Below are positions 15,352-21,977 of a stretch of DNA of 26,555 nucleotides, piece by piece (the first letter of the stretch is position 1; each line of letters starts with the position of its first letter). The position numbers and the translations under genes are program-made. Origin of the DNA: a virus. The stretch spans positions 1 through 26,555 of IMG/VR virus record IMGVR_UViG_3300047547_000276. One strand, 5' to 3'. The notes beneath the pieces were generated by a model. The model saw nothing but the letters and a program-made list of their open reading frames with translations, was not told where the DNA came from and made no database searches.

Positions 15352-15399
15352 GTAAAGGTTATTGTGAGTTTATTATATCTATAAAAATTAATATATCAA
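15352..15399 (-). promoter_or_regulatory. Promoter and leader box of the minus-strand operon
   Basis: On the minus strand: TTGATA (15399-15394), 16 nt, TATAAT (15377-15372), then TAACCTTTAC (15361-15352) and ATG 3 nt later. The 16-nt spacing and the leader box are the same as in the plus-strand promoters at 16861, 18062 and 20514, so this and those units are probably switched on together. Confidence 0.8.
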
Positions 15400-15417: not shown

Positions 15418-15444
15418 TTGACTTTATTTTACTATATGTATAAT
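15418..15444 (+). promoter_or_regulatory. Promoter of the structured leader and replication initiator
   Basis: TTGACT (15418-15423), 15 nt, TATAAT (15439-15444); the predicted start is near 15451. It is back to back with the methyltransferase promoter, the two -35 boxes lying about 20 bp apart. Unlike the other plus-strand promoters, it is not followed by the TAACCTTTAC box. Confidence 0.75.
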
Positions 15445-15450
15445 CGTTCT

Positions 15451-15598
15451 TGTTGAGTGGTTGTCCCATTATCGCAAAGAATAGTACCCTGTGCGATGGT
15501 TAGACAACCAAAAAGACTTAACATTTATATCTCCTGAAAGTAAGCGGTACTACATCTGAAAAGATGGCTTACGAGTAGGGAGTTTATTTTTTATAATT
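15451..15598 (+). ncRNA. Structured, probably pseudoknotted leader RNA
   Basis: Nested helices are visible. GGTTGTC (15459-15465) pairs with GACAACC (15503-15509), enclosing ATCGCA (15471-15476) with TGCGAT (15492-15497). GTAAGC (15540-15545) pairs with GCTTAC (15567-15572), enclosing CATCT-GAAA-AGATG (15553-15566) with a GNRA tetraloop. CTCC (15531-15534) can pair with GGAG (15579-15582). The loop TAGTACC (15482-15488) is perfectly complementary to the bulge GGTACTA (15546-15552), a 7-bp tertiary contact. The last hairpin is followed by TTTATTTTTT, so it may terminate: either a free RNA of about 140 nt, or attenuation of the initiator gene starting at 15599. I do not recognise a known riboswitch. 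Confidence 0.7.
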
Positions 15599-16297
15599 AT
15601 GACACGAGAATTTGAAGGCATATGGATAAGCAAGGAGATATGGTTATCGAAATGATTAACTATATACGAAAAGATATTCCTTGTTGAGATAAGAAGTTTG
15701 GATAATGAGAGATGATGTTTTGCTAGTAACTCATATTTTTCTGATTTTTTTTGATTAAGTAAATCAAGAGTTTCAGAAATAATTAATTCATTAAAAAATA
15801 AATGAATTTTAGATATAGAAATGTGATTATGAAATGAAAGAATTATGAGAGTTTTGCTTAAAAATACATACGGAAAAACCGAAGAGGGGTATTCGGGAAA
15901 GGCGAATAGGGTATTCGCCAAAACCGAAGAGGGGTATTCGGGAAAGGCGAAGCATAATAATATAGATATTAATAATACAATTAATAATACAATTTCTTCT
16001 AAAGAAGAAATATATAGTACTGAAATTTGCATTTCAAAAGAAAAATCAGAATTGGATTTATCTCTGGACCAGTATGCTATTATGAGAAATAAAATGAGAA
16101 AGCCTATGACAGATAGAGCAAAACAGCTTTTATTGAATAAAATGCAAGGTTATACAGAACAAGAGCAAATAGAGCTTCTTGAAGAAGCTACACTAAAATG
16201 ATGGCTTAGTGTATATCCGAAAGAAAAAGGTTATAATACAGGTAAACAGGAAATAATGGCGAGAAGAGAGGTTTTATCTCAAATTAAAATTAGCTAA
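15599..16297 (+). CDS. Replication initiator-like protein (winged-helix N-terminus)
   Basis: 232 residues, starting MTREFEGIWISKEIWLSKGL. YEKIFLVEIRSLDNERGCFA followed by SNSYFSDFFGLSKSRVSEII and NSLKNKGILDIE is the winged-helix DNA-binding domain typical of phage replication initiators. A linker with two copies of KTEEGYSGKA follows, then a polar Asn-rich stretch and a C-terminal part (MRKPMTDRAKQLLLNKMQGY) like the DnaB-loader-interacting ends of such proteins. As in lambda O, the linker DNA is repetitive and next to an AT-rich run, a possible origin. It is the first gene of the plus operon and follows the structured leader. Confidence 0.78.
15875..16000 (+). repeat. Candidate replication origin: direct repeats, palindrome and AT-rich tract
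   Basis: A 32-bp sequence starting AAAACCGAAGAGGGGTATTC occurs at 15875-15906 and again at 15920-15951 (45-bp period). The first copy's end and the spacer form a perfect inverted repeat, GGCGAATA-GGG-TATTCGCC (15901-15919). An A/T tract with almost no G/C follows (about 15955-16000). Repeats beside an AT-rich stretch inside the initiator gene is the layout of lambda-type origins. GC-rich DNA in this AT-rich genome also makes the repeat stand out. Confidence 0.55.
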
Positions 16298-16563: not shown

Positions 16564-16860
16564 ATGAAAACAGCACAATCGCCTATTGAAGTTTGGAACT
16601 TATTTCCAGACTATAGAAATCTATTGAAGCACTACTCTATTCTTGATGAAAAAGATTGAGAGATTACTATCCCAGCTTTTAAATGCTCTATTGACAAGAA
16701 TTGAAAAACAGAAAATAGATTTTATCCATACTACCACCAGAAAATGTTACAGATGTTAGAGGCTTGCAATTATGATGTAGATTTTGTTATGAGTAACTGG
16801 AGAGATACAAGTAGTTTTTGTTGTGGTGCAGATGGATCAATAGTAATTTCATTATTGTAG
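16564..16860 (+). CDS. Unknown early protein with Cys pair
   Basis: 98 residues, starting MKTAQSPIEVWNLFPDYRNL. It has GEITIPAFKCSIDKNGKTEN, an aromatic stretch (RFYPYYHQKML) and FCCGADGS near the end. It overlaps neither neighbour (1-nt gap upstream), and the next promoter's -35 box starts at the base right after its stop. No family recognised; the Cys and aromatic content suggests a small globular protein. Confidence 0.6.
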
Positions 16861-16914
16861 TTGACTTTAATTATAAAGTGAATACTATTTACTAGCTTAT
16901 TTATTAACCTTTAC
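16861..16914 (+). promoter_or_regulatory. Early promoter with conserved 5' leader
   Basis: TTGACT (16861-16866), 16 nt, TACTAT (16883-16888). The 20-nt leader GCTTATTTATTAACCTTTAC (16895-16914) begins where transcription is expected to start, 7 nt after the -10 box, and ends 5 nt before the ATG. The same 20 nt recur at 18096 and 20548. Confidence 0.8.
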
Positions 16915-18071: not shown

Positions 18072-18115
18072 AAATATAATATATACAATGATTTTGCTTA
18101 TTTATTAACCTTTAC
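18062..18115 (+). promoter_or_regulatory. Promoter and leader of the ERF transcript
   Basis: TTGACT (18062-18067, inside the end of the VRR nuclease gene), 16 nt, TACAAT (18084-18089), then the 20-nt leader (18096-18115) identical to the one at 16895. ATG follows 5 nt later. Confidence 0.8.
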
Positions 18116-19805: not shown

Positions 19806-19869
19806 TTGACTTTGAAAACATTATATATAATAATACTCCTGTTACTTAGATAACATTTATAACCTTTAC
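19806..19869 (+). promoter_or_regulatory. Promoter and leader box, third copy
   Basis: TTGACT (19806-19811); the -10 lies within TATATAATAATACT (about 19824-19837), less certain than in the other copies. TAACCTTTAC (19860-19869) stands 4 nt before the ATG at 19874. The leader is longer than in the sister promoters. Confidence 0.7.
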
Positions 19870-20274: not shown

Positions 20275-20436
20275 ATGAAATACTTTCTACTTATTATACT
20301 ATCGGTACTATCATTCGTTGCTTATGATATATACCTAATCTCTAATGAGATTAACCAGATCATGATTGACAGCGAAAAAAGACTTGAAAATATTAAAAAT
20401 CCGAGTATAAATCAAATGCCTATCTTGGGCAAGTAG
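20275..20436 (+). CDS. Small membrane-anchored protein
   Basis: 53 residues: an N-terminal hydrophobic segment (KYFLLIILSVLSFVAYDIYL) and a short charged tail (MIDSEKRLENIKNPS). TAATATG links it to the previous gene. The layout could suit a holin-like, spanin-like or exclusion protein, but nothing is diagnostic. Confidence 0.55.
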   Translation: MKYFLLIILSVLSFVAYDIYLISNEINQIMIDSEKRLENIKNPSINQMPILGK

Positions 20437-20443
20437 ATTTCAT

Positions 20444-20492
20444 GTAAAGGTTAGCTACTTTAATCCGCACTTATCAATGGTGCGGATTTATT
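20444..20492 (+). terminator. 3' untranslated segment complementary to the leader box, with terminator
   Basis: GTAAAGGTTA (20444-20453) is the exact reverse complement of the leader box TAACCTTTAC. It is followed by the terminator AATCCGCAC (20462-20470), loop, GTGCGGATT (20480-20488) and a T-rich run. The terminator is clear; pairing with leaders is a hypothesis. Confidence 0.85.
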
Positions 20493-20513
20493 TTCTTTTC
20501 TTTTCTTTTTTAT

Positions 20514-20567
20514 TTGACTTTGAAAATTATTAATCTATACTACTCATGCTTATTTATTAACCTTTAC
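20514..20567 (+). promoter_or_regulatory. Promoter and leader box, fourth copy
   Basis: TTGACT (20514-20519), 16 nt, TATACT (20536-20541), then the 20-nt leader (20548-20567) identical to those at 16895 and 18096; ATG is 4 nt further on. This is the closest match to a consensus. Confidence 0.85.
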
Positions 20568-20767: not shown

Positions 20768-21310
20768 ATGAACAATACTAACTGCAATTCCTGCAATTTC
20801 TGCGATTTCTGCTATTCCTGCAATTCCTGCTATTCCTGCAATTCCTGCAATGGCTGCGATTCCTGCGATTCCTGCGATTCCTGCAATTCCTGCTATTCCT
20901 GCGATTTCTGCAATTCCTGCTATTCCTGCGATTTCTGCTATTCCTGCAATTCCTGCAATTTCTGCGATTACTGCAGAAACCTAAAAATGACGGAATACAA
21001 TTACTTCTGCTGGTCAGAGAAAGTCAACGATGAAAACAGTTTTCAACAGAAAAGATACCGAGTATTCAATACAGAAGTATCGAAAGATGAGTATGTAAAT
21101 ATTAAGAAAATCTATCATAAAATTGAACTTAATTCAAGTGATGATTACGAAGTACGATTTCAAAACGGATTTAGGAAGATGTGGAATACACTCTCAAAAG
21201 AGGAAAAACAAGAATATCTCGATATACCACACTTCGATATGATTTACATTCATTACGGGAATTACGGAAGATGATATAAAGGATTTGAAGACGGGAAGTC
21301 TATCTGGTAA
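20768..21310 (+). CDS. Cysteine-triplet repeat protein, possibly frameshifted near its end
   Basis: 180 residues in the uninterrupted frame. Residues 6-69 have Cys at every third position, 22 in all, in units such as NSC, YSC, DSC and DFC. A fixed sequence follows: RNLKMTEYNYFCWSEKVNDE, then NSFQQKRYRVFNTEVSKDEY. After DIPHFDMI (codon ending 21244) this frame gives an odd Tyr/Gly-rich end. Dropping one T of the TTT at 21243-21245 gives TFITGITEDDIKDL and then GKEVEVIVNGTTYTAIIK with a stop at 21362, a far more protein-like end leading to the next gene. The C-terminal boundary is thus uncertain. The repeats could bind metal or stack as a disulphide or Cys-ladder solenoid. No known function. 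Confidence 0.75.
20783..20974 (+). repeat. Tandem 9-bp repeats coding the Cys triplets
   Basis: About 21 units of nine bases, NNT-TCC-TGC or NNT-TTC-TGC, with the first codon varying among AAT, TAT, GAT, AAC and GGC-type changes. The near-identical DNA, not just protein, suggests copy-number change by slippage. Confidence 0.9.
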
Positions 21311-21746: not shown

Positions 21747-21977
21747 ATGAAAAAAGATTTTAAACATATTTCTGGTAATGGTAATGGTTATGGTACTGGT
21801 AATGGTAATGGTTATGGTACTGGTTATGGTAATGGTAATGGTTATGGTGATGGTTATGGTGATGGTTATGGTGATGGTTATGGTACTGGTTATGGTTATG
21901 GTTATGGTTATGGTTATGGTTCTGGTACTGGTACTGGTTCTGGTTATGGTGATGGTGATGGTTATGGTAACTGATAA
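21747..21977 (+). CDS. Gly-X dipeptide repeat protein
   Basis: 76 residues: MKKDFKHIS, then an unbroken GX repeat (X = N, Y, T, D or S) with about 33 glycines. All repeat glycines are GGT; only the last, before the stop, is UGA. No signal peptide is seen. Such (GX)n chains are flexible or form glycine-rich sheets; adhesive or coat roles are possible but unproven. The DNA is a 6-bp microsatellite, so length is likely variable. The alternative frame reads MVMV repeats and is a shadow. Confidence 0.7.
21774..21967 (+). repeat. Hexanucleotide microsatellite (GGTNNT)n
   Basis: About 32 units of GGT followed by TAT, AAT, GAT, ACT or TCT. Strong T/G strand bias and repeat purity predict slippage during replication. 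It lies within the Gly-X gene. Confidence 0.9.

What the first reader, a model, noticed from the sequence alone, without database searches (positions are those of the whole stretch)
15451..15598. Pseudoknotted leader RNA before the replication initiator
Two complex hairpins, one with a GAAA tetraloop, and a 7-bp loop-to-bulge complement (TAGTACC with GGTACTA) lie between a clear promoter and the initiator ATG. The last hairpin, closed by CTCC/GGAG, is followed by TTTATTTTTT, so it may act as an attenuator or end a free RNA of about 140 nt. It could sense a ligand or an antisense RNA and set replication timing. I know no family with this layout.
Basis: partly seen in the sequence, partly recalled or inferred. 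Interest (0 to 1): 0.8.

Follow-up and report, generated by a model that had tools for sequence, protein, structure and literature searches.

The report
Knotted RNA leader of phage initiator
A phage of code-switched Gracilibacteria-type bacteria puts an elaborately folded, probably knotted RNA of about 130 bases in front of its replication-starting gene, apparently a new RNA switch or brake on viral DNA copying; so far only this one copy is known, so its function is inferred.

Summary
Window 15451-15582 folds far better than chance (-45.6 kcal/mol, z -5.4). A 9-nt hairpin loop carries UAGUACC, and the second hairpin's 7-nt bulge is exactly its complement, GGUACUA; no pairing of equal energy was found in 1000 sequence shuffles or 5000 loop-letter shuffles. 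One more feature: the second hairpin's 4x5 internal loop (GAAA/GAGUA) matches every core letter of the sarcin-ricin (loop E) 3D motif, and it ends in a GAAA tetraloop. Together these indicate a real tertiary-structured RNA on the + strand. It lies between a promoter and the ATG of an O-like initiator in a TGA=Gly phage. No Rfam family matches, and no homologue was found in IMG/VR, phage or plasmid collections, or 353 Gracilibacteria-class genomes, so covariation cannot be tested. Ligand sensing, an antisense partner and termination at the U-run remain unproven. Most likely it is a cis-acting gate on initiator expression, closest in logic to plasmid rep-leader pseudoknots and attenuators. A related recoded phage (G002) has an unrelated pseudoknotted leader before its own initiator. 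Side finding: five other early genes share a start-region box whose complement sits in the loop of an sRNA-like hairpin.

The parts
15418..15444 (+). Promoter: -35 TTGACT (15418-15423), -10 TATAAT (15439-15444); expected start of transcription near 15451, i.e. at the first base of the 5' stem
   Evidence: Sequence; ATTTGACTTT -35 region shared with early leaders at 16858, 18059, 19803, 20511. Not reported by the consensus scan because of the 15-nt spacer.
15451..15523 (+). Hairpin 1: P1 15451-15458/15516-15523, A-rich bulge 15510-15515, P2 15459-15465/15503-15509, P3 15468-15476/15492-15500, two inner pairs 15478-15479/15489-15490, 9-nt loop 15480-15488
   Evidence: MFE and centroid; pair probabilities 0.96-0.999.
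15482..15488 (+). UAGUACC in the loop of hairpin 1: pseudoknot side A
15531..15582 (+). Hairpin 2: P4 15531-15535/15578-15582, P5 15540-15545/15567-15572, 7-nt bulge, P6 15553-15557/15562-15566, GAAA tetraloop 15558-15561
   Evidence: MFE; P5 0.996, P6 0.86, P4 0.71.
15536..15577 (+). Sarcin-ricin (loop E, bulged-G) type internal loop: GAAA 15536-15539 opposite GAGUA 15573-15577
   Evidence: 5x4 loop; core letters AGUA/GAA match the prototype (loop size and named pairs from PMC8450098; core letters from general knowledge of the motif); descriptor finds 3 such hairpins in 2.69 Mb scanned, including this one (a fourth row, L001, is the window's own copy).
15546..15552 (+). GGUACUA, the whole 7-nt bulge of hairpin 2: pseudoknot side B
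15583..15592 (+). U-run UUUAUUUUUU directly after hairpin 2
   Evidence: Sequence; the phage's clear terminator at 20462-20488 also runs into UUUAUUUU
15599..16297 (+). Replication initiator gene, TGA=Gly code
   Evidence: HTH_36 1.1e-8; phrog_678 replication initiation O-like 1e-14
15879..15953 (+). Iteron-like repeats inside the initiator gene (CCGAAGAGGGGTATTCGGGAAAGGCGAA twice, GGCGAATAGGGTATTCGCC once): likely origin, as in lambda O
   Evidence: Sequence; repeat D4; function by analogy

Best explanation
The first ~130 nt of the initiator mRNA form one compact, tertiary-folded RNA. Hairpin 1 starts at the transcript's 5' end, and its loop pairs (7 bp) with the 7-nt bulge of hairpin 2. Hairpin 2 is kept rigid by a sarcin-ricin internal loop and capped by GAAA. 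It works in cis as a gate on production of the replication initiator. Hairpin 2 abuts a U-run and the AUG 17 nt downstream, so the locked fold sets how much RNA polymerase passes the U-run (attenuation) and/or how open the Shine-Dalgarno-less start region is to ribosomes; anything binding the loop or bulge would shift the setting. Shown computationally: secondary structure, complementarity, motif match, position, initiator identity. Inferred: transcription, the kissing contact itself, control of the initiator. Unknown: the signal, and whether transcription or translation is the controlled step.
For: Fold z -5.4 on the + strand against -3.8 (and -37.1 kcal/mol) on the - strand; G-U pairs in P1, P3 and P4 would be A-C mismatches on the other strand. 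Exact loop-to-bulge complement with 0 of 1000 and 0 of 5000 shuffles as good in energy. Sarcin-ricin core letters all matched, a hairpin form rare in 2.69 Mb. Predicted start site at the first base of P1. O-like initiator downstream with iteron-like repeats inside. The initiator is the only early gene with this promoter type that lacks the UAACCUUUAC start-region box, so it seems controlled apart from its neighbours. A related recoded phage has an unrelated H-type pseudoknot plus U-rich hairpin just before its own initiator (L097 1405-1514), and another has one before a gene of unknown function (L099 11855-11964); 0 of 300 shuffles match either.
Against: One known copy, so no covariation or conservation. 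P4, the stem next to the U-run, has only 5 pairs (one G-U, probability 0.71), so the terminator is not textbook. No strong alternative fold for a classical two-state switch. No strong antisense promoter in or near the leader (only a 9/12 match at 15687-15659). The frame upstream of ATG 15599 is open back to 15491 in TGA=Gly code, so an N-terminal extension is not strictly excluded, although homologues begin at the ATG.
Confidence: 0.5

Rival explanations
1. Terminated leader as a trans-acting small RNA: most transcripts stop at the U-run, and the ~140-nt RNA accumulates and pairs through its loop or bulge with new leader transcripts, limiting initiator synthesis (as in P4 CI RNA or Gifsy IsrK).
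For: U-run after hairpin 2; self-complementary loop and bulge could pair between molecules; pT181- and P4-like logic is known for replication genes (P4 and IsrK described in PMC4825925).
Against: Intramolecular pairing should win; no other target with strong pairing to the loops stands out (best L1 to 5214 start, -12.5 kcal/mol); the terminator is imperfect.
Confidence: 0.2
2. Processive antitermination RNA (put-like): the nascent leader binds RNA polymerase and makes it read through terminators in the long early operon.
For: Two hairpins directly after an early phage promoter, like HK022 putL (two stem-loops, ~70 nt, just downstream of PL; PMC9378689).
Against: About twice the length, different tertiary layout, hairpin 2 followed by a U-run; other early promoters of this phage lack it, and it precedes the initiator only.
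Confidence: 0.12
3. Ribosome-recruiting or 5'-end protecting leader: the fold shields the 5' end from decay or presents the AU-rich start region to ribosomes in a phage without Shine-Dalgarno sites.
For: Folding begins at the predicted first base; no Shine-Dalgarno sites with proper spacing were seen before the genes examined; the initiator lacks the box that its early neighbours have.
Against: A plain hairpin would suffice for stability; the loop-bulge contact and sarcin-ricin loop suggest more than that.
Confidence: 0.13
4. A DNA-level element (operator or origin structure) rather than an RNA.
For: Inverted repeats upstream of an initiator are common in origins.
Against: G-U pairs and the strand-specific sarcin-ricin loop favour + strand RNA; the likely origin repeats lie inside the gene.
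Confidence: 0.05

Closest known systems
rep leader pseudoknot of I-complex / IncL/M plasmids (repZ of ColIb-P9)
   Same: An RNA pseudoknot between the loop of an upstream stem-loop and a site just before the replication initiator start (details from general knowledge; Asano & Mizobuchi 1998 and Athanasopoulos 1999 are cited in PMC10724649).
   Different: No antisense RNAI gene found, no Shine-Dalgarno site at proper spacing, a 7-bp contact to a bulge inside a second hairpin, no sequence similarity; phage, not plasmid.
pT181-type countertranscript attenuator
   Same: Leader hairpin followed by a U-run before a replication initiator (from general knowledge; cited in PMC10724649).
   Different: No antisense promoter or antiterminator alternative evident here.
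HK022 put RNA
   Same: Two-hairpin RNA directly after an early phage promoter (PMC9378689).
   Different: ~70 nt, no U-run, other fold.
P4 CI RNA / Gifsy-1 IsrK
   Same: Leader RNAs of phage operons acting through complementary segments and premature termination (PMC4825925).
   Different: No processed RNA or separate target sites shown here.
Pseudoknotted leaders of recoded phages G002 (L097 1405-1514) and G005 (L099 11855-11964)
   Same: Upstream segments complementary to the loop of a U-rich hairpin just before an ATG; in G002 the gene is an initiator.
   Different: No sequence homology; H-type layout without hairpin 1; the G005 gene has no known function.

Membership tests
Any of 4227 Rfam 15 families | Covariance-model score at gathering threshold | tested here: not met
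   No match in the window; best below threshold E 4.3, DUF805b, 10.4 bits against 35.6 needed
I-complex / IncL/M rep leader pseudoknot | Loop of an upstream hairpin pairs with a site close before the initiator start | tested here: met
   UAGUACC 15482-15488 / GGUACUA 15546-15552, ATG 15599; by complementarity only
I-complex / IncL/M rep leader pseudoknot | Antisense RNAI complementary to stem-loop I | tested here: inconclusive
   Only a weak antisense promoter-like site (9/12, 15687-15659) in a region whose promoter-like matches are no more than chance gives
I-complex / IncL/M rep leader pseudoknot | Sequence relationship | tested here: not met
   No meaningful match among 72,556 plasmids
Intrinsic transcription attenuator | GC-rich uninterrupted stem followed by U-run | tested here: inconclusive
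   U-run present; stem interrupted by a 4x5 loop; not called by the scan; hairpin -17.7 kcal/mol
Intrinsic transcription attenuator | Mutually exclusive antiterminator fold | tested here: not met
   Best fold without hairpin 2 is 6 kcal/mol worse
HK022 put | ~70-nt two-hairpin RNA that modifies RNA polymerase | tested here: not met
   131 nt with a different layout; polymerase effect not testable
Sarcin-ricin (loop E) internal loop | 5x4 loop with AGUA/GAA core | tested here: met
   GAGUA/GAAA in the right orientation; 3D pairing not testable

The most novel reading that the evidence does not exclude
A new class of riboswitch-grade regulatory RNA, built from a loop-to-bulge kissing contact, a sarcin-ricin module and a GNRA cap, that decides when a phage of TGA-recoded CPR bacteria makes its replication initiator, perhaps by recruiting ribosomes without a Shine-Dalgarno site.
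Probability: 0.3. Interest if true: 0.8.

Novelty: new variant of a known kind. Interest (0 to 1): 0.58.

Why it matters
Leader RNAs that control replication initiators are well known in plasmids but little described in phages, and my literature searches found none described for phages of Gracilibacteria or Absconditabacteria. The element is compact, has a precise testable contact (UAGUACC/GGUACUA) and a recognisable 3D module, so it can be probed in vitro without culturing the host. The neighbouring sRNA-like hairpin and shared start-region box suggest that this phage's early genes may be run largely by RNA.

Tried and rejected
Homologue hunt: exact pattern in viral contigs (none). Initiator relatives L002-L005 have no such leader. 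Terminase and MCP relatives found recoded phages (L006, L091-L094, L101, L100), but model R1 gives no significant match in them or in 353 Gracilibacteria-class genomes (best E 0.13). blastn against phages and plasmids gave only matches to AT-rich flanks or 21 bases. A search for the 18-mer early-UTR box in viral contigs gave five unrelated contigs. R1 was built from one sequence (two copies), so it is weak for distant relatives. One search used a protein query whose residues after about position 60 I had typed wrongly; its empty result is discarded. The k-mer survey is uninformative, because crude gene calls missed the known motif. Leaders of related phages proved to be analogues, not homologues. 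A tRNA/tmRNA reading was rejected.

Full report
Setting. The window is a 26,555-base virus record. Read with TGA=Gly (NCBI code 25), coding density rises from 0.34 to 0.87, as reported for alternatively coded phages of Absconditabacteria and Gracilibacteria (PMC10746230). Relatives by major capsid protein are also recoded (L006, L091-L094), and one lies in a Candidatus Gracilibacteria assembly (L100). The gene at 15599 is a replication initiator: HTH_36 and several PHROG replication-initiation families. Its coding region holds iteron-like repeats at 15879-15953, as in lambda O. The divergent gene 15348 is a methyltransferase.

Observation. The leader 15451-15598 folds at -45.6 kcal/mol, z -5.4, with the MFE equal to the centroid. 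The opposite strand is weaker (-37.1, z -3.8), because the + strand uses G-U pairs in P1, P3 and P4. UAGUACC (15482-15488) lies in the 9-nt loop of hairpin 1. GGUACUA (15546-15552) is exactly the 7-nt bulge of hairpin 2. A crossing helix this good in energy did not arise in 1000 dinucleotide shuffles or 5000 loop-letter shuffles.

A further feature. Hairpin 2 contains a 4x5 internal loop, GAAA/GAGUA. The sarcin-ricin motif is described as an asymmetrical 5x4 internal loop (PMC8450098); the A-G-U-A/G-A-A core letters, which I take from general knowledge of the motif, are all matched in the right orientation, with a G-A pair at the variable position. A descriptor for such hairpins gave three distinct hits in 2.69 Mb on both strands, this one included, so a chance hit in this leader is about 1 in 10,000. 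With the GAAA tetraloop, this makes hairpin 2 look like a purpose-built 3D element.

Position. The predicted start of transcription falls at the first base of P1. The -35 region ATTTGACTTT recurs before other early genes. Hairpin 2 is followed by UUUAUUUUUU and, 17 nt after the hairpin, the ATG. Hardly any gene start in this phage has a Shine-Dalgarno-like site; GGGAG at 15578-15582 is too far from the ATG to serve as one.

Mechanism. I take a cis-acting gate on initiator expression as most likely. The U-run suggests attenuation, but the stem is interrupted, the scan does not call it, and there is no competing antiterminator fold: forbidding hairpin 2 costs 6 kcal/mol. The exact step is therefore open. 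Support from elsewhere is by analogy only. In recoded phage G002 the initiator is preceded by a pseudoknotted U-rich hairpin leader (TAAATAG/CTATTTA and GCTACAAC/GTTGTAGC), and in G005 a gene of unknown function has one (GACTAAGAGA/TCTCTTAGTC and TGTTCGA/TCGAACA); no shuffle of 300 matched either. They are not homologous to the window leader.

Novelty. No Rfam family and no homologue in any collection searched. The nearest known systems are the rep-leader pseudoknots and countertranscript attenuators of plasmids (references in PMC10724649), with HK022 put and P4 CI/IsrK as weaker parallels. I file it as a new variant of the known kind 'structured leader controlling a replication initiator', not as a member of any family.

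Side finding. Five early genes next to a promoter (15348-, 16920+, 18121+, 19874+, 20572+) have UAACCUUUAC 3-5 nt before the ATG (AACCTTTAC: 7 sites, 0.14 expected). The complement GUAAAGGUUA occurs in the 18-nt loop of a hairpin (20431-20460) directly before an intrinsic terminator (20462-20488), just after a stop codon. Predicted pairing to the five starts is -13.5 to -14.4 kcal/mol, among the best of 45 starts, although one start without the box (22409) scores -13.7. The box is not enriched in 341 Gracilibacteria-class genomes. This may be a phage sRNA controlling its early genes; the initiator with its knotted leader stands outside that set.

Confidence. Real structured RNA on the + strand: about 0.9. 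Cis-acting control of the initiator: about 0.7. Attenuation as the step: about 0.35. All function is inferred.

Noticed in passing
20431-20495 (+) with target boxes at 15352-15361 (-), 16905-16914, 18106-18115, 19860-19869, 20558-20567 (+): Candidate phage sRNA: hairpin loop AUUUCAUGUAAAGGUUAG before an intrinsic terminator is complementary to a UAACCUUUAC box just before the start codons of five early genes. Phage-specific box, 7 sites of AACCTTTAC against 0.14 expected.
   Followed up: partly
15879-15953: Iteron-like inverted/direct repeats (CCGAAGAGGGGTATTCGG, GGCGAATAGGGTATTCGCC) inside the initiator gene; distant initiator relatives (L003, L004, L104) also seem to carry repeats inside the gene.
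   Followed up: partly
L097 1405-1514; L099 11855-11964: Two other TGA-recoded phages have unrelated pseudoknotted, U-rich hairpin leaders just before an ATG, one before its initiator.
   Followed up: partly
whole window: Hardly any gene starts have Shine-Dalgarno-like sites; many downstream genes start right at or just after the preceding stop codon (TAATATG).
   Followed up: partly
20768-21010: Nine-base tandem repeat encoding a Cys-rich array (MNNTNCNSCNFCDFCYSC...), and a Gly/Tyr/Asn-rich repeat protein at 21747-21977.
   Followed up: no
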